From contig NC_011901.1 of assembly GCF_000021985.1 (NCBI RefSeq), positions 1,736,001-1,800,000 on the forward strand: a DNA stretch of 64,000 nt, read 5' to 3'. The DNA comes from Thioalkalivibrio sulfidiphilus HL-EbGr7 (GTDB lineage Bacteria > Pseudomonadota > Gammaproteobacteria > Ectothiorhodospirales > Ectothiorhodospiraceae). A model generated the notes under the pieces. That model saw only the letters and a program-made list of their open reading frames with translations. It was not told the origin of the DNA and ran no database searches. This document shows, one piece after another, positions 1-20,953 of this stretch. Within the stretch, counting starts at the first letter, position 1, and every line of letters starts with the position of its first letter. A program made the translations under genes and the position numbers.

Positions 1-837
1 CGTGGAGCCCACGTCGTAGTGGTCCTGCAGCATCTCCCAGACGTTGCCAGCGGCATCGACGACACCGGCACAGCTCACTGCCTTGGCGACGGTACCGGTG
101 GCTGTGCGGCCGCTGTTGGTGGTGGCGCTCCACGCTGTGTCGTTGTTGCCGTCGTTGCCCTGCGGAGCGCCGTCGGCGTAGACATAGAACTGGTCCAGCG
201 TCGGCACTCGCTTGCCGGCATTGGCGAGCAGGGTTGGATAGTCGAGATAGCGCGAATAGCCCTCGGTACCGGTCAGTGGCGTGGCGTTGTAGCGCGACAG
301 CGGCACGGTCTCGGGCCAGGGGGCGCCATCTTCGGACGCCAGGTAGATATCTACCCACCAGCCCGGCATGAACTCCACCATTCCCGATGGGTCACACTTC
401 GGCCGATGCTTCAGGTCCCAGACGCTGGTCGGCATGACGATCACCGAGGGATCGTAGGCAGCATTGTAGCGCTCGGACAGCGGCCGCCAGCGCCCGTAGT
501 GGAAGCCACCAATGCGTCGCGACTCGTCCGGCCCGTACCCATCCGGTACCGTGATGTTCTTGCTCGCCACCAGGTGCGCGCGGCCATTGGCCTGTTGCAC
601 GGCATACAGATAGACGTCATCGCCCAGCGCCAGGTTGTCCAGGCTGCCGTCCTGGTTGGCCGGGGCGGTCGGGTCCCAGTCGATGCGCGGCTGCAGGATA
701 AACCCCTTGCCGTTGCCGCCGATGTTCAGGATGCCCTCGGGCACGGCCAGGCGCACCTCGTCAGCCGTCCGGATCTTGCCCATCAGCTTGAATTCGCCGG
801 CCGCCTGGCCCGGTACCGCCAGAATGCTGTCCGCCAT
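1..837 (-). CDS. Mtd-like tail fibre/receptor-binding protein with C-type-lectin (FGE-like) domain, partial
   Basis: 279 residues are in the window; the C-terminus runs off the left edge. ATG at 837, three bases before the stop of the upstream gene (840). The N-terminal ~90 residues are tail-fibre-like. The later part carries GKRVPTLDQFYVY and, at the cut end, DAAGNVWEM, close to the GNVWEW hallmark of formylglycine-enzyme/C-type-lectin folds. In phages this fold forms major tropism determinants that bind host receptors and are often the variable targets of diversity-generating retroelements. Position at the end of the tail fibre module fits receptor binding. The residues that would be variable lie outside the window, so diversification is inference only. 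Confidence 0.7.
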   Translation of the reverse strand, partial: MADSILAVPGQAAGEFKLMGKIRTADEVRLAVPEGILNIGGNGKGFILQPRIDWDPTAPANQDGSLDNLALGDDVYLYAVQQANGRAHLVASKNITVPDGYGPDESRRIGGFHYGRWRPLSERYNAAYDPSVIVMPTSVWDLKHRPKCDPSGMVEFMPGWWVDIYLASEDGAPWPETVPLSRYNATPLTGTEGYSRYLDYPTLLANAGKRVPTLDQFYVYADGAPQGNDGNNDTAWSATTNSGRTATGTVAKAVSCAGVVDAAGNVWEMLQDHYDVGST

Positions 838-839
838 GA

Positions 840-1190
840 TTACTTGCCCTCCAGTTGCGCCAGTGCCGCCTCAACATCCTCGACCTCGAACCCCAGGCGG
901 ACCAGCCGGGAGCATTCGGTCTCGACCAGCCGGTATTGGGTCCGGGTCGCCTCACCGCTGGCCTCGTCCTCGTCGGTCATCACGCGATACTCGGGCTCCT
1001 CGCCATCCGGCGCCTCGCCTTCATCTAGCACGCGATCCACCTCGTAGGCGAAACGGCCGTCCAATAGCGCCTGCCAATGCCGGCGCAGGTCGGCCACTTC
1101 GTAGGGGCGCAGCTCGCCGGCCAGCGCCGCCTCCTGCAGCAGCATGAAATCAGCCCGCGTCTTGAGCTGGTTGCGCGGAATCCCTCTCAT
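840..1190 (-). CDS. Hypothetical protein of the tail fibre module
   Basis: 116 residues, acidic, no signal peptide or membrane segment. It begins MRGIPRNQLKT and is largely helical in composition. It sits between two fibre-type genes, four bases after the gp37-like fibre stop. By position it could be a fibre assembly chaperone, but I do not recognise a family motif and this is inference. Confidence 0.6.
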   Translation of the reverse strand: MRGIPRNQLKTRADFMLLQEAALAGELRPYEVADLRRHWQALLDGRFAYEVDRVLDEGEAPDGEEPEYRVMTDEDEASGEATRTQYRLVETECSRLVRLGFEVEDVEAALAQLEGK

Positions 1191-1194
1191 GTCA

Positions 1195-1812
1195 TCACTC
1201 CTCGGTCATGTCTTCGATACACAGCACGCCGTCCACCACCACGACCCGATAGGGCGTGCCGGTTTGCCGGTCCACTGGATCGATGCGCTCGTCGGTATAG
1301 TCCTGCGCGGCCTCCAGCGCCTCGGCGGCCACCGTCTCGGCGTAGCCGCGCGAGGCCAGTGCCACCGCCGGGTCTACCTCAAGGGTTACCGCCTCGGCGT
1401 TACCCCACTCGGTGATGGAGCGGATCAGCAGATCCTGCGCCGCCCCATCGTCCAGGCTAGGCTTGTAGGTCGGCGGGAAGCGCCCCACGGCGATCAGGTC
1501 GCCCTCGGCATCCTTCACGCCCACCTCGCGGATCATCCAGCCACCCGCATCGGTCGGAATCACCCCCTCGATCACCACCCAGTTAGGGTTCGCGTCATCC
1601 ACCGCCAGATGATTGATCGGCGCCGACCACACCTCATCCACCAGCGCCTCGAGGCCCTCCAGCGCCTCGCGGTCGTACTGCTCGTAGTAACTGTCGCCGC
1701 CCCCGGTGCCGGCATGCACCGTCGCCAGCTCCACGCGCGGCCCACCGGCCTGATAGGCCGCCTGCTTTTGCATCCCGATCGCCGTCAGGACCGTATAGAA
1801 ATCGCCAGCCAT
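1195..1812 (-). CDS. Tail-collar fibre protein (DUF3751/gpH N-terminal type)
   Basis: 205 residues from ATG 1812, which has GGAGG just upstream; an in-frame GTG one codon earlier is less likely. The segment WMIREVGVKDAEGDLIAVG is typical of the conserved N-terminal domain of P2 gpH-like and T4-like tail-collar fibres, which attaches the fibre to the baseplate. The protein is much shorter than P2 gpH (about 670 residues), so it appears to be only the attachment module. The distal receptor-binding part is probably supplied by the Mtd-like protein at 1-837. It follows gene I, as H follows I in P2. Confidence 0.75.
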   Translation of the reverse strand: MAGDFYTVLTAIGMQKQAAYQAGGPRVELATVHAGTGGGDSYYEQYDREALEGLEALVDEVWSAPINHLAVDDANPNWVVIEGVIPTDAGGWMIREVGVKDAEGDLIAVGRFPPTYKPSLDDGAAQDLLIRSITEWGNAEAVTLEVDPAVALASRGYAETVAAEALEAAQDYTDERIDPVDRQTGTPYRVVVVDGVLCIEDMTEE

Positions 1813-1821
1813 CACACCCTC

Positions 1822-2526
1822 CTATCCAGGAAAAACCGTCGTCCAAGCGGCGGCGTGCAGCCCCCAGCCCGAGCGACCCACATGCTGCTGCGCCACCTCG
1901 ACCACCAGCGCCGGGCGCACATCCACCGCCAGCCGCGTCTGCATGCCGGTACCGCTCACCCCCGGGTGAGCCTGCACCACCTGCGTCACCAGCCGCGGCC
2001 GCACCGTCGTCACCTGGCCATGCGTCGTCGCGCACGCCGCCCGAAACCGCCCGCGCCCCACCAGCGTGAACCCCACCGGGTCCAGCCACGCCGAGAGCCT
2101 GCCCGCACGCTCGATCACGCGCACCAGCTCGGCGTACTGCGCCTGATCCATGCCGCGCTCCTCGAGCGTGGCCGTGATCCGATAGGTGCCCGGCTCGCCG
2201 TCGTACTCATGCCACTCGGCGTACTCGATTCCCTCGATCTCCAGCGACTCAACCGCCTCGCGCACCGCCGCCGCCGTACCCGCCCGGCGACGAATACCCA
2301 TGGCCGCCGCCACCACCCCGCGCCGGCGGCTCTCCGGCCAGCTCGCCGACCACTCCTGCACGCCCAGCGCCCACGCCAGCCACGGCAACACCGAAGCCGG
2401 GCACGCCCAAGGGTCCCAAAGGTCATTGAAAGGCGCCTCAACCTGCGTTGAACGCACCGTCACCGCCTCCAGCTCGCGCTCCACGCGCGACCGGTTGGGC
2501 GGCAGCAGGCTCTTGGGATCGCTCAT
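1822..2526 (-). CDS. I: Phage tail protein I (P2 gpI family)
   Basis: 234 residues. The start MSDPKSLLPPNRS at 2526 is chosen because its ATG overlaps the stop of gene J (ATGA), as in the rest of this operon; an upstream in-frame extension has no family similarity. The family pattern LWDPWACPASVLPWLAWALG is visible near residue 40. In P2, gpI is a baseplate component assembled with J and W at the tail tip before fibre attachment. The W-J-I order here matches P2. Confidence 0.88.
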   Translation of the reverse strand: MSDPKSLLPPNRSRVERELEAVTVRSTQVEAPFNDLWDPWACPASVLPWLAWALGVQEWSASWPESRRRGVVAAAMGIRRRAGTAAAVREAVESLEIEGIEYAEWHEYDGEPGTYRITATLEERGMDQAQYAELVRVIERAGRLSAWLDPVGFTLVGRGRFRAACATTHGQVTTVRPRLVTQVVQAHPGVSGTGMQTRLAVDVRPALVVEVAQQHVGRSGWGLHAAAWTTVFPG

Positions 2527-3392
2527 GCCAGCGTCACCTCGATCCGCGTGCAGAAGGCCGCCTGGGTGTCGTCGCACACCACGTCATCGGCCAGTTCCAG
2601 ATTCACCCGGCGCACCCCCTCCACGTACAGCGTCGCCAGCGCCGCATCCCGCACCACCCCCAAGCCCAGCCGATGATGCGCCTCGGTGAACGCCTCGATG
2701 CGCTCCTCGGCCTCCTCGCGCACCACCTCGGGGTCCGGGCCCGGGTCCACCTCCAGGGTGGCCACGATCTCGTAGGGCAGGATCTTCGCACTCTGCGCAT
2801 GCACCAGGTCGGTCTGCGGGCGCACCGTCTCCGCGCTCGCCGCCGCCAGCACCGTCTCCAGCAGCGCCGCACTCGCCTCGCCATCGGCCTGGCGCGAAAG
2901 CACCGTCAGCATCACCTCGGTCGGCGCCGGCGTGATCGCCGTGGCATCCTTCACATCCGGGTCCGCCGACAGCGCGTGATACACGTAGCCGTCTCGCGGC
3001 CCCGCCGTGCTCCAGCCGTCCGGGGCCAGCAGGAAGCGGCGCAGATAGTCCTCGTCGCTCTCCCAGGTCGGCGGCACCGGCGGGTCCACCTCCTCGTCGC
3101 CCTCATCCAGCAGCAGTCGCGGCGTGGCGTAGTAGGTCACCCCGATATGGTCCAGCTCCTCGCCCTGCGCATAGGCCGCCAGCAGCATGCGGATACGCTC
3201 GTTCTGCTCCTGGCGCCGCACCATCTCGCGGTACGCCGCCACCTCCAGCACCTTGTAGGCCGGGTCGCTCACCAACACCGTCACGCCCAGGCGGCTTTCC
3301 AGGTCCTCGAGCATCTCCGCCAGGATCTCCTCGAAGCTCAGCTCCTCGAGCACCCGCGGCGGCGGCAACTTGCTAAGATCGATCACGCTCAT
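2523..3392 (-). CDS. J: Baseplate assembly protein J (P2 gpJ)
   Basis: 289 residues, close to the P2 gpJ length. It opens MSVIDLSKLPPPRVLEEL, the usual gpJ start. A mid-domain segment YLRRFLLAPDGWSTAGPRDGY matches baseplate J-like proteins (T4 gp6 superfamily). These form the wedge ring of the contractile baseplate. It overlaps W upstream and I downstream by four bases each, indicating translational coupling. Confidence 0.92.
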   Translation of the reverse strand: MSVIDLSKLPPPRVLEELSFEEILAEMLEDLESRLGVTVLVSDPAYKVLEVAAYREMVRRQEQNERIRMLLAAYAQGEELDHIGVTYYATPRLLLDEGDEEVDPPVPPTWESDEDYLRRFLLAPDGWSTAGPRDGYVYHALSADPDVKDATAITPAPTEVMLTVLSRQADGEASAALLETVLAAASAETVRPQTDLVHAQSAKILPYEIVATLEVDPGPDPEVVREEAEERIEAFTEAHHRLGLGVVRDAALATLYVEGVRRVNLELADDVVCDDTQAAFCTRIEVTLA

Positions 3393-3718
3393 ACGTCCTC
3401 CAGCACCACCGGGCGCCCCTCAGGCAGGTACACCCCCTCGATCGTGAACACCGGCCCCTCGTCGCGCACCTCCACCAGGCGCACCCGCTCCAGGCGCAGG
3501 CGCGGCTCCCAGCGGCGCAGCGCCTCAGCCACCGCCGCATACACCTCCACCTGGAAGCGCTGATCCACCGGATCGTCCACCAGCTCGAACAGCTGCGAGC
3601 CGTACTCGCGGTTCATCACCCGGCTACCGATCGGCGTCGACAGGATGTCGCGCACGCTCTGACGCAGGTGCGCCAGCCCCTCCAGCGCCTTGCCCGTCTC
3701 CGCGCTCATGCCCGCCAT
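3389..3718 (-). CDS. W: Baseplate assembly protein W (GPW/gp25)
   Basis: 109 residues. The segments QSVRDILSTPIGSRVMNREYG and FTIEGVYLPEGRPV are the GPW/gp25 family signature. The protein is a lysozyme-like-fold sheath initiator in the baseplate wedge. It lies next to gene D rather than next to V, unlike P2 where V and W are adjacent. An alternative ATG is three codons in. Confidence 0.92.
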   Translation of the reverse strand: MAGMSAETGKALEGLAHLRQSVRDILSTPIGSRVMNREYGSQLFELVDDPVDQRFQVEVYAAVAEALRRWEPRLRLERVRLVEVRDEGPVFTIEGVYLPEGRPVVLEDV

Positions 3719-4702
3719 CTACACCCCCTCGCACTCGACACGGCAGCGATAGCCGCGCTTGTTCAGCACATGGGTCACCCGGCGCACCAGCCACACGTCG
3801 TCCACCCGCTCGCGAAAGCCCGCCAGGCGGATCAACTGCTGGCTGGCCAGCTCCGGCCGCCCCGGCAGCTCCAGCGAAAGGCGCCGCGCCTGGCGCTGCC
3901 CCTTGGCCAGCGCGCTGTCCGCCGCCGCCTGGGCCGTGTCGGCATTCACGAAGGTGCGGTTCAGCACCTTCTGCGGCAGCCCCTCGCCGGCCACCGCCTT
4001 GGTGCGCTCGGCATGCTCGAAGTCATGCCAGAAGGCCACCACGCTCTGGTAGCGCCGGCGCGCCAGGAAGTGCGCCCGCCAGCGGCTCACCTGCGCCGGC
4101 GTGATCGTCGTGGCCGGCTCCTGCTCGGCCAGCGCCGCGTAGCTCAGAAACACCCAGTGGCCGTCCACCGGCTTGAACATCGCCCCGTAGAGGTCGGCCA
4201 TCTCCGCCGCCAGACCCAGGTCGCTCACCCCCGCCTGGTCGGTGTGCGGCAGCTCGATCTCGCCCAGGGCGGCAGGGCGGAAGAAGGTCGTGAAGCCGTG
4301 CTCGCTGGCGATCTCGTCCATCAGCCGCTTGAAGGTGCGCGGCGTACCGTCCGCGAGCACCGCGTCGAAGCTGCGCTCCCGCGGCGCCCGCGCCTGGCTG
4401 GTGAAGTTGGCGCTGGTCGCCGAGAGCTTCAGCACCCCCGGCGGGCCTTCATGGGCGATCTGGTCGATGGCGAAATTGGTAGAGACTCGCTCAAAGCCGC
4501 CGACATAGCCCAGAATCACACTCATCTCTGAACCCTCAGAGGGGAAGGAAAGCCGGCCGTCATCGGCCAGCTCCAGCTCCAGGGCGTCGGAGTAGTCGCC
4601 CGACCGATCTTCCAGACGCAGCTCCATAAGGTGGTCTTTAATCAGCGGAGTGATATCCTGATTGTTCGAGCTAACGCGATAGAACGGCGCGATCATTGAC
4701 AC
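3719..4702 (-). CDS. D: Tail protein D (P2 late control gene D protein, tail hub)
   Basis: 327 residues, the usual family length. The start is GTG 4702 with GAGG seven bases upstream; an ATG two codons in is the alternative. The segment DRSGDYSDALELELADDGRL near residue 35 is typical of the phage late control D/gp27-like hub family. The hub joins the tail tube to the baseplate spike. Its start lies only 14 bases from the divergent start of the secreted protein at 4717. Confidence 0.9.
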   Translation of the reverse strand: MSMIAPFYRVSSNNQDITPLIKDHLMELRLEDRSGDYSDALELELADDGRLSFPSEGSEMSVILGYVGGFERVSTNFAIDQIAHEGPPGVLKLSATSANFTSQARAPRERSFDAVLADGTPRTFKRLMDEIASEHGFTTFFRPAALGEIELPHTDQAGVSDLGLAAEMADLYGAMFKPVDGHWVFLSYAALAEQEPATTITPAQVSRWRAHFLARRRYQSVVAFWHDFEHAERTKAVAGEGLPQKVLNRTFVNADTAQAAADSALAKGQRQARRLSLELPGRPELASQQLIRLAGFRERVDDVWLVRRVTHVLNKRGYRCRVECEGV

Positions 4703-4716
4703 AGGGGGACCTCATC

Positions 4717-5028
4717 ATGAAAAAAGCAGCCCTTGCGCTGATCGCCGCAATGGCGCTCACCAGCGCAGCCATTGCTAGCGACCAAAAGTGCGTTGCCTGG
4801 ACCAATGACTGCACCCCGGCAGGGACTAGCGCGAAATGGCAGGCAACGCTTCACTTTGATGGCGATCGAGAGCCCGAGACGTCGGCCTATGATCACGGCA
4901 TGCGAGCCCAGACCATTGGCGAACAGGCTTGCCGCCGGACCGCCACCGCCTGGAACCCTGAGCGCGTCGCTCGGGTTGACGTAACCCGTACAAGCACCGG
5001 CGAAACGGTCACTATTCATTGCTCCTGA
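4717..5028 (+). CDS. Small secreted protein inserted in the tail operon (probable moron)
   Basis: 103 residues on the strand opposite to all neighbouring late genes. ATG 4717 is preceded by AGGGGGA. Residues 1-20 form a clear Sec signal peptide (MKKAALALIAAMALTSAAIA, cleavage before SDQK). The mature part of about 83 residues has four cysteines, compatible with two disulfides in the periplasm. No family recognised. The gene sits between D and X, replaces no tail gene, and its end overlaps the 3' end of X by 13 bases. Base composition looks less GC-rich than its neighbours. Opposite orientation, autonomy and a signal peptide are typical of moron genes expressed from a prophage; function unknown. 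Confidence 0.75.
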   Translation: MKKAALALIAAMALTSAAIASDQKCVAWTNDCTPAGTSAKWQATLHFDGDREPETSAYDHGMRAQTIGEQACRRTATAWNPERVARVDVTRTSTGETVTIHCS

Positions 5029-5240
5029 CTCCACGGCACCTTTACCCTCCGAGACTCCACCACCTCACCCTCCACCTCAGGCAGCTCCACCAGCGTCCCC
5101 GCCGGCAGGCGGGGGCCCAGCGCCGCCAGCCCCCGGTTTGCCGCATACACCCGCTCCACCACGCCCTGGGTGCGCCCGTAGTAGAGCTGGCAGATCTCGT
5201 CGACCATCTCGCCCTCCTTCGCCCGGTAGGTGGCCATCAT
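5016..5240 (-). CDS. X: Tail protein X (P2 gpX, LysM-like)
   Basis: 74 residues from ATG 5240 (a second ATG follows directly). The segment EICQLYYGRTQGVVERVYAAN is the hallmark of the P2 gpX family, small proteins with a LysM-like fold in the tail. It overlaps the stop of U by four bases. Its 3' end overlaps the convergent secreted-protein gene. Confidence 0.9.
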   Translation of the reverse strand: MMATYRAKEGEMVDEICQLYYGRTQGVVERVYAANRGLAALGPRLPAGTLVELPEVEGEVVESRRVKVPWSQEQ

Positions 5241-5710
5241 GCCTCCTCCCCGGCGTGCTCGAGCTGCAGGTGGAAGTCGATGCGCTTGGGCGCGCCCACC
5301 CGGTCGTAGACCCGCCGCGCCTCCTCCACGCGGGTGATGGCGAACTCGCCGTACACTACGCCCAGCCCATCCACCAGCAGCCAGGGCCGCCCCAGGCCGG
5401 CCAGCTCGCGCAGCGCGGCGATCTGGCCAAGCCCCCCCTTGTAGTGCGGGTACAGGGTGCCGTCCAGGCTCACCGATTCCTCCTCGGGGCCGGTCCACTG
5501 CAGCAGCGGGCGCACCCCCACCCGCGCCTGACTCGGCCAGCCGTAGCGGGCGTTATGCCGCACGCTGTCCGGCGCCGCCGTGCCCACGCTGAACATGAAC
5601 GGGCCCAGCAGCATCATCACCCGCTCACGACTCTCGGCCTGGCCGCGCACCGCCGATAGTCCCTGGCGCACCCGGCTCACCGAGCGCAGGCCGGAAATAA
5701 TGTCCACCAT
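5237..5710 (-). CDS. U: Tail protein U (P2 gpU)
   Basis: 157 residues. ATG 5710 overlaps the tape-measure stop, which decides the start; longer in-frame extensions inside the tape-measure gene are artefacts. The segments VMMLLGPFMFSVGTAA and LPHYKGGLGQ-like LYPHYKGGLGQIAALRELA match the P2 gpU family, needed for tail completion at the head-proximal end. Confidence 0.9.
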   Translation of the reverse strand: MVDIISGLRSVSRVRQGLSAVRGQAESRERVMMLLGPFMFSVGTAAPDSVRHNARYGWPSQARVGVRPLLQWTGPEEESVSLDGTLYPHYKGGLGQIAALRELAGLGRPWLLVDGLGVVYGEFAITRVEEARRVYDRVGAPKRIDFHLQLEHAGEEA

Positions 5711-8508
5711 CAGTCGGCCTCCACGCCGTGCGCCTGCTCCCACATCGTCTCGTCGCGATAGCGGGACAGCCGCTCGTCCAACAGGTTGGCCAGGTCCTCG
5801 GCGTTGGCGTTGGCCCCGGCCTCGATCGTGATCTGCGGGCGGAAGTCCACCCGCTGCACCGTGGTGCCGCCGCCCTGGCGGCGTTCGTGCTCCGGCGCTC
5901 CGCGCCGCGCCATGGTCAGCGGTTCGGCGGCCTCGGGGGCTTGCGCGGCCTCGGCGTCGCGCTGGCGCTGCCACTCCCGCACCCAGGCCGGCGCCTCATC
6001 CTGCGCCGCCGGGGCAGGCTCGCTACCCAGCAGCTCGCGCGAGCGCGCCAGGGGGTGGGGCTCGGCGGGGGGCGTGTCGCCGCCCGGCTCGGCGTCGCGG
6101 CGCGGCATCCGCGTCGGCGCCCCCGGGCCGGCCACCGCCACCACCGGCTCGTCGTTACGGCTGATGCCCAGCGCCCCGGCCGCCCGCGAAAAGGCGTTGC
6201 CCACCCACTCCAGGCGGTCGGCGATCCAGCCGATCGCCCGCTCGGCGCGCTCGGTGATGCCGTCCCACATGCCGCCGAACCAATCGGCCACGCCGCCCCA
6301 GGCCGCCTCGATCGTCGCCAGCGGCGACCAGGCCAGAATCCCCTTGAGCACGTCCCAGGCCCAGCCCGCCTCGGCGGTCAACGCGTCCCAGTGGTCGCGC
6401 AGCCAGGCCAGCGCCCCGCCAAAGCCCCGCTGCAACAGCCCCAGCGGGCTCCAGCGGTACAGCGCCTTCAGCGCGCTCCAGCCAGCCTCGGCCGCCGCCG
6501 GCCAGTCCACCCCGCCCAGGTACTCCAGCGCCCGGCCAAAGCCTCGCTGCATCACGCCCAGGGGAGACCAGCGGTACAGCGCCTTCAGCGCGCTCCAGCC
6601 AGCCTCGGCCGCCGCCTGCCAGTCCACGCCGCGCAGCCAGGCCAGCGCCTCGCCAAAGCCCCGCTGCATCACGCCCAGGGGAGACCAGCGGTACAGCGCC
6701 TTCAGCGCGCTCCAGCCACCCTCGGCCGCCGCCTGCCAGTCCACCCCGCCCAGGTAGTCCAGCGCCTGGCCAAAGCCGCGCTGCATCACGCCCAGGGGAG
6801 ACCAGCGGTACAGCGCCTTCAGCGCGCTCCAGCCAGCCTCGGCCGCCGCCTGCCAGTCCACGCCACCCAGGTACTCCAGCGCCCGGCCAAAGCCTCGCTG
6901 CATCACGCCCAGGGGAGACCAGCGGTACAGCGCCTTCAGCGCGCTCCAGCCGCCCTCGGCGGCATCGCGCCAGGTCAGCCCGGCCAGCCACTCCCGCGCC
7001 CGGCCGAAGCCGCTCACCAGCAGCCCCAGCGGGCTCCAGCGGAAGATCTCCTTCACCGCGCCCCACTCGCCGGAAAGCAGCCGCTTCCAGGCGTCCAGCT
7101 GGCGGCCCAGCCAGTCGCCGATCGGCCGCCACAGCGGCTCGAGCATCGCCAGCGGATCGAAGCCCAGCCACTCGGTCACCGCCTCCCAGCCGCGCCGCGT
7201 GGCGTCGCTCACCGTCGCCCAGGTGTCGCGGAAGAACGGGCCCACCCGGTCCCAGTTGGCGATCAGCAGCGCCGCACCGCCGGCCAGCAGCGCCACCGTC
7301 GCCAGCACCGGGTGCGCCATGGCCGCCAGCGCCAGCGTCTTCAGCCCGGCCAGCACCGCCGGCAGGGCCTTCACCGCCAGCCCCACCAGGGCGAAGCCCA
7401 CCCGGCCCAGCGCCCAGCCCAGCGACACCATCGCCGCGGTGAACTTCACCAGCGGCACGATCAAGGGCGCGCCGATCATCAGTGCCAGCGCCCCGGCCGC
7501 CACGTGCAGCGCCCCGAAGCGCTCCACCAGCGCCGCGCCCAGCTCCAGCGCCGGGTTGATCGTCACCATCAGCGCGTCGAACTCGCCGCGCAGCCAGGCA
7601 ATCCGCCCCGGCAGGTCGGCAGCGAAGCCCTCGGCCCACTCGCGCACCAGCGGCTGCACGTACAGCACCCCGGCGGTGATCTGGTCCATCAGGTCGCCGA
7701 ACGCCGGCATCAGCGCACCGCCGATGATATTGCGCAGCCCCAGCATCGACTTGCGCATGTCCAGCATCTGGTCGGCGAACTGCTCGCCCTGGCGCGCCGT
7801 CTCGTCGGAAAGGATGAAGCCCAGATCCCGCGCCCGCTCGCGCAGCCGGTCGATCTCGTCGGCGCCGTCGCGCACCATCCGCGACATGTCCATGCCGGCC
7901 CGGCTGAACGCCGCCGCCGCCATGCCGTTACGCTCGGTCTGGTCTGCCGCGCCCTCCATGGCGCGCATGTAGAGGCTCAGCGCCTCATTGGTGTCGCGCG
8001 CATGGGTCAGCTGCTCGAGCAGCTCGGGGTTGGTCTCCTTCAGTCGCGAATGCAGCGCCCCGGTGCCGTCACGGGCATCGGCCAGGCGCCGCGAGAAGGC
8101 CGCAAGCGAGCTGTTGAAGGTCGACTGACTCACCCCCATGCGCTCGGCGGCGTACTGCCACTCCTGCAGGCTCTCCACCGGGATGTCCATCTGGTCGGCG
8201 AACTTGGCCAGCTCGTCGGCGCTGTTGGCCACCGCCACCGTGATGCCGGTCAGCGCCGCCGCGCCGGCGGCGCTGACCGCCGCCAGGCGGCGACCCACGC
8301 GCCCCGCGGTGTCGTACAGCTCGCGGCCCGCCTCGCCGGCCCGGCTGAAATTCTCCGTCACCCGCTCGAAGCCCACCTGGCGGCCGATCGATTCGGCATT
8401 ACGCTTGAACGCGCCCAGGCTCTCCTGGGCGCGCTTCACCGGTGCCGTCATCTGGTCCTGCATGCGCAGCAGGACGGAAAGGGCCATGTTCGAGCCGGAT
8501 GAACTCAC
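5710..8508 (-). CDS. T: Tail tape measure protein
   Basis: 932 residues. The N-terminus (MALSVLLRMQDQMTAPVKRA) matches P2 gpT-type tape measures. A hydrophobic stretch lies around residues 360-420. The centre holds a striking tandem array, five near-identical 39-residue units of the WSALKALYRWSPLG type (6364-6948), flanked on each side by a degenerate unit. The C-terminus is proline- and charge-rich. The protein sets tail length and lines the tube. Tail length is proportional to tape-measure length, so unit number should affect the tail. It follows E/E' with a four-base overlap. Confidence 0.93.
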   Translation of the reverse strand: MSSSGSNMALSVLLRMQDQMTAPVKRAQESLGAFKRNAESIGRQVGFERVTENFSRAGEAGRELYDTAGRVGRRLAAVSAAGAAALTGITVAVANSADELAKFADQMDIPVESLQEWQYAAERMGVSQSTFNSSLAAFSRRLADARDGTGALHSRLKETNPELLEQLTHARDTNEALSLYMRAMEGAADQTERNGMAAAAFSRAGMDMSRMVRDGADEIDRLRERARDLGFILSDETARQGEQFADQMLDMRKSMLGLRNIIGGALMPAFGDLMDQITAGVLYVQPLVREWAEGFAADLPGRIAWLRGEFDALMVTINPALELGAALVERFGALHVAAGALALMIGAPLIVPLVKFTAAMVSLGWALGRVGFALVGLAVKALPAVLAGLKTLALAAMAHPVLATVALLAGGAALLIANWDRVGPFFRDTWATVSDATRRGWEAVTEWLGFDPLAMLEPLWRPIGDWLGRQLDAWKRLLSGEWGAVKEIFRWSPLGLLVSGFGRAREWLAGLTWRDAAEGGWSALKALYRWSPLGVMQRGFGRALEYLGGVDWQAAAEAGWSALKALYRWSPLGVMQRGFGQALDYLGGVDWQAAAEGGWSALKALYRWSPLGVMQRGFGEALAWLRGVDWQAAAEAGWSALKALYRWSPLGVMQRGFGRALEYLGGVDWPAAAEAGWSALKALYRWSPLGLLQRGFGGALAWLRDHWDALTAEAGWAWDVLKGILAWSPLATIEAAWGGVADWFGGMWDGITERAERAIGWIADRLEWVGNAFSRAAGALGISRNDEPVVAVAGPGAPTRMPRRDAEPGGDTPPAEPHPLARSRELLGSEPAPAAQDEAPAWVREWQRQRDAEAAQAPEAAEPLTMARRGAPEHERRQGGGTTVQRVDFRPQITIEAGANANAEDLANLLDERLSRYRDETMWEQAHGVEAD
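6364..6948 (-). repeat. Five tandem 117-bp coding repeats in the tape measure gene
   Basis: An identical anchor word (gcggtacagcgccttcagcg) recurs at 6454, 6571, 6688, 6805 and 6922, an exact 117-bp period (39 codons). Differences between units are few and mostly in the W-x-GGVDW/LRGVDW half. Degenerate versions of the unit flank the array on both sides, so the repeat arose from an older family motif and was recently homogenised. Confidence 0.95.
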
Positions 8509-8989
8509 TCTTTCGCTCCATAGGCGTGGTTCCAGCGCGCCAGGGCCTTATCGCGCCACTCCAGGATCTCGCTGGCCGCCCGGCCCATCAGCCAATCGGG
8601 CGACCAGTGGAAGACGAAGGCCACGTCGGCCATCGCCGCCTTCAGATCCCCCCACCGCGGACATCGGGCAAAAAATAGCCCAGCACCTGCCCCATGCGGG
8701 CCAGGTCCCGCGAGCCCAACCCCTTCACCTCCTCGGGGCCCAGGCCCACGCACTCGCCCAGGATGCGGAAGCTCGCCTCCACCTGGGCCTTGGCGCTGGC
8801 CGCCTTGCTCACCAGCTCCACGTGGTAGCCGGAAGGCTCGCGGAAGGTCAGCGACTCGCGGCGCTCGCCGCCGAACTCCCGCGGCGAGATCAGCTCCAAC
8901 TCCACCACGTCCACCAGCGCCTCGCGCAGCACATCCACGTCCACGTCGTCGCGCTTGCCGATCACCGCCACGCCATCCTTGATATCCAT
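8505..8989 (-). CDS. Tail assembly chaperone E+E' (frameshift product)
   Basis: The 161-residue product comes from -1 frameshifting near the end of the 115-residue E frame. The downstream frame contains MADVAFVFHWSPDWLMG and SEILEWRDKALARW, the P2 GpE family pattern. In P2 the same pair of overlapping frames upstream of the tape measure gives E and E+E', chaperones that coat the tape measure during tail assembly. The downstream frame ends overlapping the tape-measure ATG. Confidence 0.85.
8642..8989 (-). CDS. E: Tail assembly chaperone E (unshifted product)
   Basis: 115 residues from ATG 8989. The segment VELVSKAASAKAQVEASFRIL and the position between tube and tape measure fit the phage tail E family. 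The sequence LSPREFGGERRESLTFREP-like core (ISPREFGGERRESLTFREP) is typical. Terminates 27 bases after the slippery heptamer at 8669-8675, so most ribosomes would make this form and a fraction would extend into E'. Confidence 0.87.
   Translation of the reverse strand: MDIKDGVAVIGKRDDVDVDVLREALVDVVELELISPREFGGERRESLTFREPSGYHVELVSKAASAKAQVEASFRILGECVGLGPEEVKGLGSRDLARMGQVLGYFLPDVRGGGI
8669..8675 (-). other. -1 ribosomal frameshift slippery site T-TTT-TTG
   Basis: The minus strand reads TAT TTT TTG CCC in the E frame. T TTT TTG is a classic X-XXY-YYZ heptamer and is the one known from P2 E/E'. Slipping back one base gives GCC CGA TGT and continues in the E' frame to 8505. Confidence 0.85.
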
Positions 8990-9025
8990 CGTTCAAACCC
9001 CTCTCGTCGGTCGGTTAACGGGCGC

Positions 9026-9520
9026 TTAAATGCCCAGGTGGTCGCGCAGGCCGGCCAGTTGATCCTCGCCATTGACGATGCGCACCATGCGCTCCACGTC
9101 GATGTTGTGGATCTCCTCGCCGCCGATCGCCAAGCGGTAGCGGTGGGCGGCGAACTCCACCGTCAGGTTGGCCGCCGTACCGCCCACCCAGTCGCCCGGG
9201 TTCTGCACCACGAAGCGCCCGTACAGCTCGGCGGTGGCGCCCTTGGTCTCGCCGTCGTGACTGATCAGCGCCCCGCGCAGGGTCAGCGCCACATCGCCCT
9301 TGCCGAACAGCTTCAGCACTTCCGCCGGCACCGTGGCGAACTGCAGGCTGGCGCGCAGCGCCTCCATGCCCATGTCCATCTCGATCGGCGCATCCATGCC
9401 GCCCGCGCGCATCGCCTCGGTGGTGATGGTCAGCTGCGGCAGCGTCACTTGGTTGCACTGGCCGGCATAGTGGCGGCCATCCACGAAGGCCACCACGTCC
9501 CGCATCACGTCTTTGAGCAT
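9026..9520 (-). CDS. FII: Major tail tube protein FII (P2 gpFII)
   Basis: 164 residues. The segments MDAPIEMDMGMEALRASLQF and LTLRGAL match the P2 FII tube family. It polymerises into the inner tube of the contractile tail. ATG 9520 overlaps the sheath stop. Confidence 0.92.
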   Translation of the reverse strand: MLKDVMRDVVAFVDGRHYAGQCNQVTLPQLTITTEAMRAGGMDAPIEMDMGMEALRASLQFATVPAEVLKLFGKGDVALTLRGALISHDGETKGATAELYGRFVVQNPGDWVGGTAANLTVEFAAHRYRLAIGGEEIHNIDVERMVRIVNGEDQLAGLRDHLGI

Positions 9521-10716
9521 CAGAGGATCTCCTCCAGGTAGTCGTTGACCATCCGGCTACGGAAGGTCACCCGCTCGGCCACCCCGTAGGGCGAGAAGTC
9601 GAAGTCGAACACCACCCGGCCGTCCATCATGTCGGTCGGCGTGTTCAGCTCCGGGTCGGCCCACACGCTGCCGCCGGCAATCCGCCCCTCGGCGGTCAAC
9701 CGGTCGATGAACGCCTGCACCCCGCCGGTCACGTCCTCGATGTAGGTCCGGGTGATGTTGCGATCCACCGCCCACAGGTGCGCCGCCAGCAGCGAGTCGT
9801 TGATGATGTCGGCGATGCGCACGTGCGCCAGGAAGGCCCACCTGGCGTCCTCCGAGGTGGTGCGGTTGCCCCACAGGCGGTAGCCGCTCTCCTGGATGGT
9901 CACCGCGATGTCGTGGCTGTTGAGGAAGTTGGCCCGGCAGGTCGGGTCGCCCAGGGTGAAGTCGATCTCCCGCGACAGCCCCATGATCCCCGGCACGATC
10001 TGGTTGGACGGCGAGGTGTGCCAGCCGCGGCTGTTGTCGTTCCAGGCGATCACCCCCGCCACCCGCGCCGAGCCCGGGCGCGTCACCGGGCCGTCGGCCT
10101 CGGTGTCCCACACCTGGTACCACGGCTCGTGGAAGTACACGCGCTTGGTGCCGAAGTCGTCGCGCGCCGCCAGGGCGTCGTTGTCGTTGGTATTGGGGCC
10201 GTCCACGATCACGATCGCGCGCAGCTTGTCGGCCACGCTGGCCAGCGCCGCCGCCACTGGGTTGGCCAGAAACTCCCCAGGGGTCTCCGGGTCTTCCATG
10301 CGCTGGTGGGTAAAGCCCGGCGCGATCAGCAGGCGCGGCTTGGCGCCCACCGTCGAGCCCGCCGCCAGCAGCGCTTCCACGCCCAGGTACTTGCCGGTGG
10401 CGCTGTCCACGCCGCCGATCACGTTGCTCATGGTCGCGGCGTCGTCCTCGCCCTCGTCGACACGCACCACCACCACCATGGCACCGGTCACGCTCAGGAT
10501 GTCGGCCAGGGCGTCGGGCAGGGTGCCCTCAATGCCCAGCGCCGCCGCCTGGCTGCGCGAGCCCAGCACCAGCACCGGCTCGTTCAGCGGAAACGCCTCG
10601 CTGTCGGCCTCCGGCGCGGTACCCACCACGCCGATCACCGAGCTGGACGCCGTGCGGATCGGGCGAATGCCGTCGTCGATCACGACGATCTCCACCCCAT
10701 GCAGAAAATCAGGCAT
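9520..10716 (-). CDS. FI: Tail sheath protein FI (P2 gpFI)
   Basis: 398 residues, the usual length of P2-type sheaths. N-terminus MPDFLHGVEIVVIDDGIRPI and internal SSSVIGVVGTAPEAD are family patterns; NFLNSHDIAVTIQESGYRLWG and the C-terminal handshake region are also present. It forms the contractile outer sheath. Presence of sheath and tube makes this a myovirus-type particle. Confidence 0.95.
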   Translation of the reverse strand: MPDFLHGVEIVVIDDGIRPIRTASSSVIGVVGTAPEADSEAFPLNEPVLVLGSRSQAAALGIEGTLPDALADILSVTGAMVVVVRVDEGEDDAATMSNVIGGVDSATGKYLGVEALLAAGSTVGAKPRLLIAPGFTHQRMEDPETPGEFLANPVAAALASVADKLRAIVIVDGPNTNDNDALAARDDFGTKRVYFHEPWYQVWDTEADGPVTRPGSARVAGVIAWNDNSRGWHTSPSNQIVPGIMGLSREIDFTLGDPTCRANFLNSHDIAVTIQESGYRLWGNRTTSEDARWAFLAHVRIADIINDSLLAAHLWAVDRNITRTYIEDVTGGVQAFIDRLTAEGRIAGGSVWADPELNTPTDMMDGRVVFDFDFSPYGVAERVTFRSRMVNDYLEEIL

Positions 10717-10918
10717 CGCTCACCCCTCCCTTGTCCTGCCCCTCGGCCTTGGCCTTGCGCGGCTTGGCCGGGGGCGTGGTGACGCCGGGTCGCTCCAGGT
10801 GCGTGCCCAGCAGGTACTTGGCTTGCCGCGGGTGCAGCGTGATCGGCTCCCCCGGCTGATACACCCGGCCCCGATGGGGCAGGGCGGTCTTCACGGTGTA
10901 GGTCTGTTGCTTACTCAT
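10709..10918 (-). CDS. Small phage structural-region protein, unknown
   Basis: 69 residues. The fold-like stretch HRGRVYQPGEPITLHPRQAKYLL is followed by a basic lysine/alanine tail. Overlaps the sheath start by eight bases. Small proteins of this general form are common upstream of sheath genes in Mu-like phages; no function can be assigned. Confidence 0.7.
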   Translation of the reverse strand: MSKQQTYTVKTALPHRGRVYQPGEPITLHPRQAKYLLGTHLERPGVTTPPAKPRKAKAEGQDKGGVSDA

Positions 10919-10939
10919 CTCTCACCTCGCAGGAACCGC

Positions 10940-11137
10940 TCATTGCACCGGGTAGGTGCCGGCACTGGAGCCGCCGGACACCACCACCTCGGCATTGCTG
11001 GTCACCTCATCCACCACCGCATTGGCGATCGCCTCGGCCAGGCGCTCCACCCAGCTGTGCTCGCCCGTCGCGGTGGCACCCTGGGCCACCATCTCGCTGA
11101 TGATCCGCCCCTTCAGATCGCCCTTGGAAAGCGCCAT
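10940..11137 (-). CDS. Small conserved phage protein, unknown
   Basis: 65 residues. Helical N-half (AEAIANAVVDEVTSNAEV) and a glycine/serine end. It lies directly after the spike gene V and before the sheath. No family assigned; coding is supported by tight packing and strand. Confidence 0.7.
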   Translation of the reverse strand: MALSKGDLKGRIISEMVAQGATATGEHSWVERLAEAIANAVVDEVTSNAEVVVSGGSSAGTYPVQ

Positions 11138-11138
11138 G

Positions 11139-11723
11139 TCACTCTCCCGCCGTCACGGTGGAGCTGCCGTCACCGTGCGGATTGCCGGTGAAATGACAGA
11201 TGTGCCCGGTGGTCACCACGGCGTTGCCCTGGTTGAGGTGGATGCTCGCCGCGTCCACCTCGGCGGTGCCGTCCACCGTGGCCGCCAGGTTGCCGCCCAC
11301 CTGGGCGGTCACGTCGCCCACCACCTGCAGACGGGCCTCGCCGGGCAGGCTCACCGACAGCACGCTGGCCGCGCGGTCGTACTCGAACACCGCGCCGTCG
11401 GCGAAGGTGAAGCGCGCCAGGTCCGGGCGGTCGCCCGGCGCCGGGCGCTGGTCGTGGTACAGCGCCGCCAGCGCCACCGCCGCCAGCGCCTCGCCGTTGG
11501 GCGAGAGCACCATCACCTCCTCACCCACCTCCGGCGGCCACCAGCTCTTGTCGTTGCCGGCCCGGCCCGCCACGAAGGGCACCCAGTCCGACAGCCGATC
11601 GGCCAGCCGCACCCGCACCCGGGGCGGAGTAGTGGTGTACTCGGCCTGCTCGATGCGGCCCGGCTGCAGCAGGCGGAACACCCGCCGCTCCAGCTTCTCC
11701 ACGCGCCTCTCCAGGCTCTCCAT
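11139..11723 (-). CDS. V: Baseplate spike protein V (P2 gpV)
   Basis: 194 residues. ATG 11723 overlaps the stop of a 27-codon mini-frame. It opens with a coiled-coil-like MESLERRVEKLERRVFRLL, then an OB-fold region (DWVPFVAGRAGNDKSWWPP, VGEEVMVLSPNGE) and a beta-helical C-terminal half ending GNPHGDGSSTVTAGE. This is the P2 gpV layout, the membrane-piercing spike. Unlike P2 it is separated from W by the whole sheath-to-D segment. An 83-bp tandem duplication covers its first 12 codons. Confidence 0.88.
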   Translation of the reverse strand: MESLERRVEKLERRVFRLLQPGRIEQAEYTTTPPRVRVRLADRLSDWVPFVAGRAGNDKSWWPPEVGEEVMVLSPNGEALAAVALAALYHDQRPAPGDRPDLARFTFADGAVFEYDRAASVLSVSLPGEARLQVVGDVTAQVGGNLAATVDGTAEVDAASIHLNQGNAVVTTGHICHFTGNPHGDGSSTVTAGE

Positions 11724-11852
11724 CACGACACCTCCTCGCCGTCGATCCGCTCGTAGTCGTCGGGGAACTGCTCCAGCTTCTCCACGCGCCTCTCCAGGCT
11801 CTCCATCACGACACCTCCTCGCCGTCGATCCGCTCGTAGTCGTCGGGGAACT
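11687..11852. repeat. 83-bp tandem duplication across the gp37/V junction
   Basis: Copies at 11687-11769 and 11770-11852 are essentially identical. The unit contains the last ~15 codons of the gp37-like gene and the first ~12 codons of V. Because 83 is not a multiple of three, the second copy creates a new 27-codon frame instead of lengthening either gene. Confidence 0.93.
11723..11806 (-). CDS. 27-codon mini-frame created by tandem duplication
   Basis: ATG 11806 overlaps the stop of the gp37-like gene and its own stop overlaps the V ATG. The product would be the N-terminus of V (MESLERRVEKLE) joined to the C-terminus of gp37 (QFPDDYERIDGEEVS). It is probably not functional as a protein but keeps translation coupled from gp37 to V. 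Confidence 0.5.
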   Translation of the reverse strand: MESLERRVEKLEQFPDDYERIDGEEVS

Positions 11853-12357
11853 GCTCCGGCTGCCAGCCCGCCCACACCTCGCTGGGCGTCTCGCCGCTGC
11901 CGTCCCAGGCCGTCTCGCCCACCAGCACCACCTGGCGCCACACCACCGCCCACAGGGCGAAGCCCTTGGCGTCCAGGGCGGCGCTGTAGAGGTTCTCCAG
12001 CCCCGCCAGGCGGGCATGCATCACGTCCGGGGCCAGGCCCCACTGCGCGTGCTGCACCTGCTGCGCCCAGCTCACCGCCAGGCTCATCGCATCACGGCCC
12101 CGCTTGGCGGCCCCCCGCGCGTTGCGCGCCAGGCAGTACGCCGCCCAGCGCACATCCAGGGCAATGCGCCCCTCGCCGGGCTGCTCGTCGGCCAGCGGCG
12201 CCTCCAGCGCCGCCACGAAGAAGGCCGGCGCCACCACCCGCCCCTGGGTCGGCCCCTCCGGCCCGAACTGGCCGGCGTAGGGCTCCACCTGGGCCAGGCC
12301 CGGCAGCGCCTCGCCGGCCTGGACCAGAATCGCGTCCTGCACCGCCGCCAGATCCAT
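11806..12357 (-). CDS. Mu gp37-like protein (DUF1834), head-tail region
   Basis: 183 residues. ATG 12357 overlaps the stop of the gp36 gene. Layout after gp36 and segments such as FFVAALEAPLADEQPGEG and RWAAYCLARNARGA fit the Mu gp37 family, a probable tail-completion or terminator protein. The C-terminal end falls in the 83-bp duplication. Confidence 0.8.
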   Translation of the reverse strand: MDLAAVQDAILVQAGEALPGLAQVEPYAGQFGPEGPTQGRVVAPAFFVAALEAPLADEQPGEGRIALDVRWAAYCLARNARGAAKRGRDAMSLAVSWAQQVQHAQWGLAPDVMHARLAGLENLYSAALDAKGFALWAVVWRQVVLVGETAWDGSGETPSEVWAGWQPEQFPDDYERIDGEEVS

Positions 12358-12779
12358 CACAGGAACCCCTTGCTGTCGTTGCGATCCCACACCCGGCCAC
12401 CCGACACCATCTCGGCGCCGTCGGCGCTGGCCGGCGCCTCGCCCTCGGCGCTAACGCCCAGGTCGATGTCGCCGCGGCTGATGCGCAGCAGGGTGTCCAG
12501 CGCCGCCTTGAAGCGCATCACCACCTGCTCGGGGGCGTGATCGTCGTACAGGTAGTAGCGCGCCATGTCGGCGCACAGCCGCACCAGCACGGTCGGCACG
12601 TGGGCCAGCGGCAACACGTAGCGTGCCGCCAGGTAGCCGTCGATCTCCGCCGTGGCATCCACCAGGGCGCGCTCGGCGATGGCCGCGTCGATCTCGCCCT
12701 GGTGGGCGCGATCGGTGAGCTGGCGGATCTCCACCTCGCCGAAGCGCTCCACCAGGTGCGACACCTCGGCGTAGCTCAT
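12357..12779 (-). CDS. Mu gp36-like protein (DUF1320), head-tail connector
   Basis: 140 residues. The segment ALVDATAEIDGYLAARYVLPL is the diagnostic DUF1320 pattern. The family is thought to contribute to the head-tail connector. Overlaps both neighbours by four bases. Confidence 0.9.
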   Translation of the reverse strand: MSYAEVSHLVERFGEVEIRQLTDRAHQGEIDAAIAERALVDATAEIDGYLAARYVLPLAHVPTVLVRLCADMARYYLYDDHAPEQVVMRFKAALDTLLRISRGDIDLGVSAEGEAPASADGAEMVSGGRVWDRNDSKGFL

Positions 12780-13144
12780 GACCGCTTCACCTCGATCAGC
12801 GGGTCACGCTCCAGCTGGGCCAGCACCGTCTCGCTCACCACCTGCTCAGTGGCGCGGCGGGTCACCACCACGCCGCCGCGAATGCGCCGCTCCAACCGCG
12901 TCGAGACCACCACCGTTACCTGCCCCTTGGCCGGCGTTTCACCGCCGGCTGAAGCCGCCTTGGCCGGCGCCGACGGATCGGGCTTGCCCTCCTCGGGCTT
13001 GGCGGTGGCGCCATCCTTGGCGGCCGCGTCCGTGGCCGGCTCCTTCACGTCGGTCTCCGTGGCGCCCTGGCCAGGCTGGGTATCCTTGGCGTCGGCCTCG
13101 GGCGCCTTGGCGGCGCCTTTGGTGGCCCTGGTCTTCGTGGTCAT
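12776..13144 (-). CDS. Mu gp35-like protein with disordered N-terminus
   Basis: 122 residues. The first ~75 are Ala/Lys/Glu/Pro-rich and low in complexity; the last ~45 (GQVTVVVSTRLERRIRGGVVV) form a small folded part resembling the Mu/FluMu gp35 (HI1506) family. It lies immediately after the major head gene, as in Mu. Possible head decoration or stabilising role is inference. Confidence 0.75.
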   Translation of the reverse strand: MTTKTRATKGAAKAPEADAKDTQPGQGATETDVKEPATDAAAKDGATAKPEEGKPDPSAPAKAASAGGETPAKGQVTVVVSTRLERRIRGGVVVTRRATEQVVSETVLAQLERDPLIEVKRS

Positions 13145-13155
13145 GCGCTACCTCC

Positions 13156-14067: not shown

Positions 14068-14591
14068 CAGTTGGCCTCCTTCAGGCTCACGTACTCGTCA
14101 TGCGGGATACCCAGCTGCCGGCATACCGCCAGCTCCTCGTCCGACAGCCGCTTGCCGTCGCCGCCGCCCTCGGGCGCCTTGCCGCCGCTCTGCTGGCCCG
14201 ACAGCGCGGCGATCGGCGCCGCCGTCTCCAGGTAGCTGCGCAGCGCGGCAATATCCTTCTTGCCCAGCTCCCGGGCCCAGTCCTTCAGCGCCGGGGTGCT
14301 CAGCACGCCGTCGGCGTCGGCCTGGTCGATCAGCCGGTCCAGCTCGCGGCCCTCGCCCTCCTGGATCTTGCTCGACAGCGCCGCCACCTGGTCGCGCAGC
14401 TGGCTCACCGCCTCTACCGGCACGTACTTGGCCGGGTCGGGCTTGCCCGACTGGCTGCGCAGCGCGGCCAGCTCCGTCTCCTGCTCGTCGAGCCTGGCCA
14501 GTCGCGCGGTCAGCGCCGCCACCGCCTGCTCGATCTGCTCCTCGCTGGCGCCTTCCTCCAGGCCCAGCAGCTTGCGTAGTGCCTCGTTCAC
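14067..14591 (-). CDS. Z: Internal in-frame scaffold protein Z
   Basis: A GTG at 14591, in frame with the protease, is preceded by GAGGAGG at ideal spacing, and starts VNEALRKLLGLEEG. It would give a 174-residue helical protein. In Mu, scaffold Z is made from an internal start in gene I, so the same design is likely here. Confidence 0.7.
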   Translation of the reverse strand: MNEALRKLLGLEEGASEEQIEQAVAALTARLARLDEQETELAALRSQSGKPDPAKYVPVEAVSQLRDQVAALSSKIQEGEGRELDRLIDQADADGVLSTPALKDWARELGKKDIAALRSYLETAAPIAALSGQQSGGKAPEGGGDGKRLSDEELAVCRQLGIPHDEYVSLKEAN

Positions 14592-20275: not shown

Positions 20276-20285
20276 GACCGCCTCC

Positions 20286-20941: not shown

Positions 20942-20953
20942 GCATCCCCCGCA

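What the first reader, a model, noticed from the sequence alone, without database searches (positions are those of the whole stretch)
1..837. Tropism-determinant-like lectin protein at the window edge: possible diversity-generating retroelement just outside
The protein ends in the window with VVDAAGNVWEMLQDHYDVGS, the core of the FGE/C-type-lectin fold used by Mtd-type receptor-binding proteins. In known systems the variable repeat is at the 3' end of such a gene, followed by avd, a template repeat and a reverse transcriptase. All of these would fall directly left of position 1. The gene lies at the fibre end of a phage, the classic setting.
Basis: partly seen in the sequence, partly recalled or inferred. 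Interest (0 to 1): 0.72.

Follow-up and report, generated by a model that had tools for sequence, protein, structure and literature searches.

The report
Phage tail tip with mutation machine
A dormant Mu-like virus in this bacterium carries a complete reverse-transcriptase cassette that rewrites the tip of its tail protein, a known kind of host-switching device, and nearly the same cassette sits in an otherwise unrelated P1-related virus, which points to a recent swap.

Summary
The gene cut by the left window edge encodes a 351-aa homologue of Bordetella phage BPP-1 Mtd. Directly left of position 1, in BPP-1 order, lie a 130-bp variable repeat (VR) at its 3' end, avd, a 130-bp template repeat (TR), a 175-nt structured spacer and a reverse transcriptase (RT). 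TR and VR differ at 8 positions, all 8 at TR adenines. The cassette is the last module of an intact-looking 35,463-bp Mu-like prophage with MuA, MuB, TG...CA ends and a 5-bp target duplication. Across 23 distinct TR/VR pairs, 238 of 245 mismatches are at TR adenines. A 3.1-kb block is 99.4% identical to a Halomonas salipaludis prophage with a P1-related backbone. The TRs are identical, yet the VRs differ at 15 sites, all at TR adenines, against 5 differences in the other 2,973 bp. That is sequence evidence of recent activity and of a module swap. DGRs in Mu-like phages are already in print (hankyphage; Chromohalobacter phage YPCBV-1), so this is a new member of a known kind. In YPCBV-1 the homologous target was published as an antioxidant gene; it holds a VR.

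The parts
1..837 (-). mtd-like receptor-binding protein gene (DGR target), part inside the window; whole gene 351 aa at L003:15782-16837 (window x = L003 x minus 16000), its 3' end with the VR lies left of the window
   Evidence: PF21916, PF03781; phrog_11262; PDB Mtd 1yu4 E 6.4e-16
1..1 (-). Marker for the parts just left of the window, minus strand of L003: VR 15791-15920; hairpin GCCCCGC/GGCA/GCGGGGC 15747-15764; avd 15426-15785; TR 15272-15401 (25 adenines); RNA spacer 15097-15271; RT 14053-15096; phage end 13990; left copy of TTCGG 13985-13989
   Evidence: VR/TR; hairpin by eye; avd: NF033474 97.1 bits, cut-off 80, PF22296, PDB 4dwl E 0.0087; spacer; RT: PF00078, phrog_1423, PDB 8ub7; ends:
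1..1296 (-). Window part of the block shared at 99.4% with the P1-related prophage of Halomonas salipaludis (whole block L003:14194-17296)
1..33452 (.). Window part of the Mu-like prophage (whole: G000:C1:1733990-1769452, 35,463 bp, ends TG...CA)
   Evidence: Mu genes
33453..33457 (.). 5-bp target-site duplication TTCGG, right copy, inside the quinone reductase gene
28983..31061 (-). MuA-type transposase
   Evidence: PF02914 E 4.4e-50, PF09039, PF02316, PF09299
27929..29032 (-). MuB-type ATPase
   Evidence: PF09077 E 1.8e-31, PF13401
1195..1815 (-). tail-collar fibre protein; upstream edge of the shared block lies in its 3' part
   Evidence: PF12571 E 3e-52; edge at window 1296

Best explanation
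This is a complete BPP-1-type diversity-generating retroelement (DGR) at the right end of a Mu-like transposable prophage. Inferred mechanism: the TR RNA with its structured spacer is bound by Avd and the RT; cDNA is made with random bases opposite TR adenines; the mutated cDNA replaces the VR in the 3' end of the mtd-like gene, guided by the identical 3' end of the repeats and the hairpin downstream. Up to 25 adenines can thus be re-drawn while TR stays fixed, which changes the binding face of a C-type-lectin-like tail-tip protein and so the receptor the phage can use. Shown here: the parts, the adenine-only differences, and VR divergence from an identical TR in three pairs of near-identical cassettes. 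Inferred: the biochemical steps (known from BPP-1), and that this protein binds host receptors. Also inferred from sequence: the whole module (3' end of the collar-fibre gene to most of RT) was recently exchanged between this Mu-like phage, or a close relative, and a P1-related phage of Halomonas.
For: Gene order mtd(VR)-avd-TR-RT as in BPP-1. Families and solved-structure matches for all three proteins. TR/VR 8 of 8 at adenines, probability 6.7e-7 if sites were random. 23 distinct pairs: 238 of 245 mismatches at TR adenines. Own against L072: TR identical, 0 of 1,189 bp different in avd, spacer and the first 625 bp of RT, 2 of 917 in mtd before VR, 15 in VR, all 15 at TR adenines. L037/L038: 14 VR differences, all at adenines, 0 elsewhere in what was compared; L025/L041: 12, all at adenines, 1 elsewhere. 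Spacer covariation. Prophage ends, target duplication and an open reductase frame across the joined flanks.
Against: No experiment. Rfam's Phage_DGR model is hit only below its gathering score. The structure model of the target is poor (mean pLDDT 48.2), so the lectin fold rests on sequence homology to Mtd (27-28% identity to the Bordetella phages; PDB E 6.4e-16). 7 of 245 pooled mismatches are not at adenines. In four more divergent pairs of the 8 compared, TR differs too and adenines account for 9 of 16, 13 of 19, 15 of 23 and 13 of 28 VR differences; in L074/L075 for 11 of 13. NCBIfam's best RT model is the group II intron maturase, below cut-off. Towards the 3' end RT of the two shared copies differs strongly: 71 of 1,041 positions in all.
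Confidence: 0.96

Rival explanations
1. A fossil DGR: the parts are intact by descent but the element no longer retrohomes in this phage.
For: No expression or activity data exist here; the prophage was seen in a single genome. Which of the two compared copies was active after the split is not known.
Against: avd, TR, spacer and the first 625 bp of RT are identical to the H. [quoted passage not shown] In the window's own copy VR differs from TR only at adenines.
Confidence: 0.08
2. The near-repeat is an ordinary gene duplication and the RT belongs to a group II intron or an anti-phage RT.
For: NCBIfam ranks the group II intron RT/maturase model first (E 8.9e-35), but below cut-off, 120 against 300 bits.
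Against: 8 of 8 differences at adenines, 238 of 245 in 23 pairs, Avd above its curated cut-off, phrog_1423 and PDB 8ub7 as best RT matches.
Confidence: 0.01
3. The target is a phage-carried metabolic enzyme (SUMF1/EgtB type, antioxidant), as published for the homologue in Chromohalobacter phage YPCBV-1.
For: PF03781 FGE-sulfatase match; the annotation and the reading in PMC9769972 (passages seen).
Against: PF21916 and six PDB Mtd matches; in YPCBV-1 the same gene ends in a VR with 14 of 14 mismatches at adenines of a TR beside its RT.
Confidence: 0.02
4. The 99.4% block shared with the P1-related prophage is an assembly chimera in H. salipaludis, not an exchange.
For: Only one H. salipaludis assembly was seen; the IMG/VR copy (L024) has the same TR and VR as L072 and may derive from the same genome.
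Against: Both edges lie inside genes that stay open (collar fibre 234 aa, RT 372 aa); the VR differs at 15 sites, so it is not a copied contaminant; the P1-type portal lies on the same contig, ending 9.6 kb upstream of RT (coordinates).
Confidence: 0.07

Closest known systems
Bordetella phage BPP-1 DGR (mtd-avd-TR-brt)
   Same: Gene order, VR at the 3' end of mtd, repeat size class (134 bp there, 130 here), Avd, RT (about 40% identity), GC hairpin with GRNA-type loop after VR (the GRNA rule is recalled)
   Different: BPP-1 is not on a Mu-like backbone (recalled); Mtd only 27% identical; hairpin lies 26 nt after VR here; avd overlaps the mtd stop here but not in BPP-1
Chromohalobacter phage YPCBV-1 (OP380511.1)
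   Same: Same Mu-like layout and the same cassette at the right end: Mtd-like 64.5%, RT 81.6% identity, TR/VR 126 bp with 14 of 14 adenine differences
   Different: DNA about 76% identical over 84% of the block; target published as an antioxidant metabolic gene; the paper names avd and RT, and the term 'template repeat' has no occurrence in its main text
Bacteroides dorei hankyphage DGR
   Same: Mu-like transposable prophage with 5-bp flanking repeats and a DGR (PMC6199706, passages seen)
   Different: Target is a protein of about 2,200 residues with no sequence similarity to characterised proteins; here it is a Mtd homologue
P1-related prophage of Halomonas salipaludis WRN001 (L072, G005/G020)
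   Same: 3,103-bp block at 99.4%, TR identical
   Different: Backbone with P1-type portal, PmgG/PmgB-like and DarA/DdrB-type proteins, no MuA or Mu portal match; VR differs at 15 adenine sites

Membership tests
Diversity-generating retroelement | Near-identical TR and VR that differ at TR adenines | tested here: met
   130 bp, 8 of 8 differences at adenines; 238 of 245 over 23 distinct pairs
Diversity-generating retroelement | DGR-type reverse transcriptase beside TR | tested here: met
   phrog_1423 E 3.1e-122, PDB 8ub7 E 1.7e-68, RVT_1; no RT tree was built
Diversity-generating retroelement | VR in the 3' end of a C-type-lectin/FGE-fold target gene | tested here: met
   VR ends 9 bp before the end of the gene, stop included; PF03781, PF21916, Mtd PDB matches through residue 351; the fold model itself was poor and was not used
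Diversity-generating retroelement | Accessory protein Avd | tested here: met
   NF033474 above cut-off, PF22296
Diversity-generating retroelement | TR stays fixed while VR diversifies | tested here: met
   Three pairs with identical TR and 15, 14 and 12 VR differences, all at adenines
BPP-1-type DGR | Hairpin/cruciform just after VR | tested here: met
   7-bp GC stem, loop GGCA, 26 nt after VR; like elements in 23 of 23 retained pairs by eye and in BPP-1; function not tested
BPP-1-type DGR | IMH in VR differing from IMH* in TR | tested here: inconclusive
   Repeats share ...CTGCGCGGTGTCTGTGAC and diverge right after it; no mismatch marks an IMH border
BPP-1-type DGR | Mutagenic retrohoming and tropism switching in vivo | not testable with these tools
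   needs a lysogen and phage stocks
Mu-like transposable phage | MuA and MuB, Mu-type portal, TG...CA ends, 5-bp target duplication | tested here: met
P1-related backbone (H. salipaludis prophage) | P1-type virion proteins | tested here: met
   portal phrog_1497 and 25% identity to P1 portals, PmgG/PmgB-like, DarA_N and ddrB-ParB; against: the sheath matches 2 phage records at E <= 1e-5, neither named P1; plasmid replication and Cin not looked for

The most novel reading that the evidence does not exclude
The DGR travels as a ready-made host-range module between unrelated phage backbones, here a Mu-like transposable phage and a P1-related phage. TR, Avd and most of RT arrive unchanged and the VR is re-drawn afterwards. 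Mu and P1 classically share a homologous invertible tail-fibre segment (G and C; recalled, not tested), so this would be the retroelement counterpart of that exchange: the same tail position swapped by the same two phage kinds, with reverse transcription in place of DNA inversion.
Probability: 0.6. Interest if true: 0.55.

Novelty: new member of a known kind. Interest (0 to 1): 0.42.

Why it matters
It turns a window-edge guess into a fully laid-out cassette and adds a natural experiment: two copies of one 3.1-kb module in different phage backbones, with nearly everything fixed except the adenine-templated sites. That makes it possible to measure how fast and where a DGR writes, apart from ordinary mutation. 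It also corrects a published reading: the YPCBV-1 'antioxidant' gene ends in a DGR variable repeat, so annotation pipelines that see the FGE-sulfatase fold in phages should check for a TR before calling a metabolic gene.

Tried and rejected
Group II intron or anti-phage RT: rejected on Avd, TR/VR adenine bias and best matches. RT hits elsewhere in the genus (G003, G004; 23-30% identity) were not followed as DGRs. Other VRs: a genome search with TR found only TR and VR at E <= 0.001. L076 (Achromobacter pulmonis): the script returned a 273-bp near-repeat instead of a TR/VR pair; its contig holds 1,127 N and doubled stretches, so it was set aside as an assembly problem. AlphaFold model of the target: mean pLDDT 48.2, not used, no fold search made. 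Host identity: a 16S search of the window's genome found nothing; not pursued. A first version of the TR/VR extension favoured mismatches at adenines; it was repeated with uniform penalties before counting, but started from the places found. The TR/VR survey used 28 of the 86 loci returned (20 of 48, 8 of 38), those with RT identity of 61% or more; the other 58 were not examined. Of 13 pairs of cassettes over 88% identical, 8 were compared in detail, among them all 3 over 99%. Searches of plasmids and phages with the 3.1-kb block found 1 record each: a distant DGR in Ideonella, and YPCBV-1; an exact 54-base piece of TR is in 1 IMG/VR contig, the H. salipaludis one. A phrase search for papers on Mu and P1 invertible segments found none, so that comparison is recalled. 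'Diversity-generating retroelements' with 'P1-like' gave 0 papers; 'diversity-generating retroelement' with 'Halomonas' 1.

Full report
What was checked. The window lies at G000:C1:1736001-1800000 of a 3,464,554-bp genome held as one contig, so the sequence left of position 1 could be read (L003 = 1720001-1738000). The minus-strand gene at window 1-837 is 351 aa long and ends at L003:15782; 72 codons and the stop lie outside the window. It is a Mtd homologue: PF21916 E 3.9e-19 and PF03781 E 1.6e-5, phrog_11262, and 6 PDB Mtd sequences as the only solved relatives at E <= 0.01.

The predicted retroelement is there. A 130-bp direct repeat lies at L003:15791-15920 (in the 3' end of the gene, VR) and 15272-15401 (TR). 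Within it there are 8 differences and all 8 are at adenines of the TR on the coding strand; with 25 adenines in 130 bases the chance of that is 6.7e-7. The 8 changes fall in 8 codons and all change the residue. Between the repeats lies avd (L003:15426-15785; NF033474 97.1 bits against a cut-off of 80), and after TR the RT (L003:14053-15096 from the likely GTG start; PF00078 E 9.6e-18; phrog_1423 E 3.1e-122; PDB 8ub7 E 1.7e-68). It is the only RVT_1 match in the genome at E <= 0.001, and TR and VR are the only two matches to the repeat. The order mtd-avd-TR-RT is that of BPP-1.

The RNA and the target site. The 175-nt spacer between TR and RT folds into helices supported by 18 sequences: 97.0% of cells paired, 14 of 36 pairs with changes on both sides, 0 of 500 shuffles reaching any of the five measures; slid versions reach at most 49.9% paired and 9 such pairs. 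The structure was predicted from the same alignment, which favours it. Rfam RF03022 Phage_DGR matches the same place and strand over its full length but below its gathering score (26.6 against 50 bits, E 0.071). A 7-bp GC hairpin with loop GGCA lies 26 nt after VR; by eye a like element follows VR in 23 of 23 retained pairs, and BPP-1 has one with loop GAAA.

The phage. MuA (PF02914 and three further Mu domains), MuB and a Mu F-like head protein and a Mu portal (PF06074) are present, with major head protein, protease, terminase subunits, tape measure and endolysin. The prophage runs from 1733990 to 1769452 (35,463 bp), starts with TG, ends with CA and is flanked by the 5-bp repeat TTCGG; joining the flanks gives one open frame of the quinone reductase, whose two parts are found apart by NF008024. 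The cassette is the last module; RT stops 63 bp from the phage end. Not every phage gene was examined; 3 of 10 proteins had no family.

Relatives. Of 48 IMG/VR and 38 GTDB loci, the 28 with RT identity of 61% or more were examined, with YPCBV-1 and the window's own copy. One (L076) was set aside as an assembly problem; 6 duplicates were counted once. In the 23 distinct TR/VR pairs left, 238 of 245 mismatches are at TR adenines, 4 at T, 2 at G, 1 at C (uniform penalties). Hosts include Halomonas, Bordetella hinzii, Pusillimonas caeni, Halothiobacillus (MAG) and Desulfobulbus elongatus.

Activity. Eight of 13 pairs of similar cassettes were compared in detail. In three the cassette is nearly identical outside VR: own against L072 (Halomonas salipaludis), 2 of 917 bp before VR and 0 of 1,189 after it, TR identical, VR 15 differences, 15 at TR adenines; L037/L038, 0 of 917 and 0 of 1,196, VR 14 of 14; L025/L041, 1 of 1,099 and 0 of 1,086, VR 12 of 12. 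L074/L075: 13 VR differences, 11 at adenines. In the other four, more divergent pairs the TRs differ too and adenines account for 9 of 16, 13 of 19, 15 of 23 and 13 of 28 VR differences. So the first three show targeted writing from a fixed template after the copies split; which of the two copies wrote is not known.

Module exchange. The block shared with H. salipaludis is 3,103 bp at 99.4%, from the 3' part of the collar-fibre gene to about codon 300 of RT, with sharp edges; 20 differences in all, 15 of them in VR and 3 of the other 5 in the last 40 bp (Fisher p 1.2e-17 for VR against the rest). Beyond it RT differs strongly (71 of 1,041 positions over the gene). Within the 21-kb locus L072 the only further DNA match is the N-terminal part of the collar fibre (69.8% over 470 bp); L110 and L111 were not compared as DNA. 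The H. salipaludis prophage has no match to this phage's MuA or portal nor to PF02914, but has a P1-type portal on the same contig (phrog_1497; 2 of 22 records, which are this prophage twice), PmgG- and PmgB-like proteins and DarA/DdrB-type domains. Its portal is 62% identical to Xanthomonas phage Rb1 and 25% to P1; its sheath is 62% identical to Rb1 and matches only one other phage record, not a P1. Hence a P1-related, not a Mu-like, backbone. Among the records searched, 12 of 21 match this phage's MuA, 15 of 21 its portal, 9 of 22 PF02914; many are fragments. Where matched, MuA identity is 31-59% and portal 27-48%, against 61-94% for RT, which fits a cassette that moves or is more constrained than the backbone; the two were not told apart.

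What is known. DGRs in Mu-like phages are in print: hankyphage with 5-bp flanking repeats (PMC6199706, passages) and YPCBV-1 (PMC9769972, passages). Roux et al. [quoted passage not shown] TR identical in three genomes with hypervariable VRs is reported for Pseudoalteromonas ACA phages (PMC10612066, passages). So kind and mechanism are known; the system is a new member. In PMC9769972 the homologue of the target (ORF53) is presented as an antioxidant auxiliary metabolic gene; here it ends in a VR with 14 of 14 adenine differences. One search of the library for DGRs with 'P1-like' gave no paper.

Limits. No experiment; a poor structure model; host unnamed. The Mu G / P1 C segment comparison is recalled.

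Noticed in passing
L011 (OP380511.1) 33159-34208 and 34074-34199 / 34591-34716: YPCBV-1 ORF53, published as a SUMF1/EgtB antioxidant auxiliary metabolic gene, is a homologue of this Mtd-like gene and ends in a DGR variable repeat (14 of 14 adenine differences).
   Followed up: yes
L072 (Halomonas salipaludis) 7801-10903: The RT of the shared cassette looks like a hybrid: about 300 codons match the window's phage almost exactly, then the C-terminal part switches to a different sequence.
   Followed up: partly
window 6408-7011: Tandem repeat of 117 bp x 5.2 (39-residue units with ...WSALKALYRWSPLG...) inside the tape-measure gene; copy number might set tail length (a guess).
   Followed up: no
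window 11687-11861: 83-bp tandem repeat, 2.1 copies at 98%, at overlapping reading frames in the baseplate region; looks like a recent slip near a gene boundary.
   Followed up: no
window 4696-5028, plus strand: Small ORF with a signal-peptide-like start (by eye), opposite in strand to the tail genes; YPCBV-1 also has a reversed gene among its tail genes (L011:27246-27452). Possible lysogeny-expressed extra gene.
   Followed up: no
G004 in the same genus: L016-L020: Five RT frames of equal length (482 aa) and near-equal score (27% identity to the DGR RT) scattered in one genome, probably group II intron copies; not aligned with each other.
   Followed up: no
L076 (Achromobacter pulmonis ANB-1 scaffold24): A DGR locus broken by N gaps and doubled stretches in a draft assembly; such cassettes may be under-counted in drafts.
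   Followed up: partly
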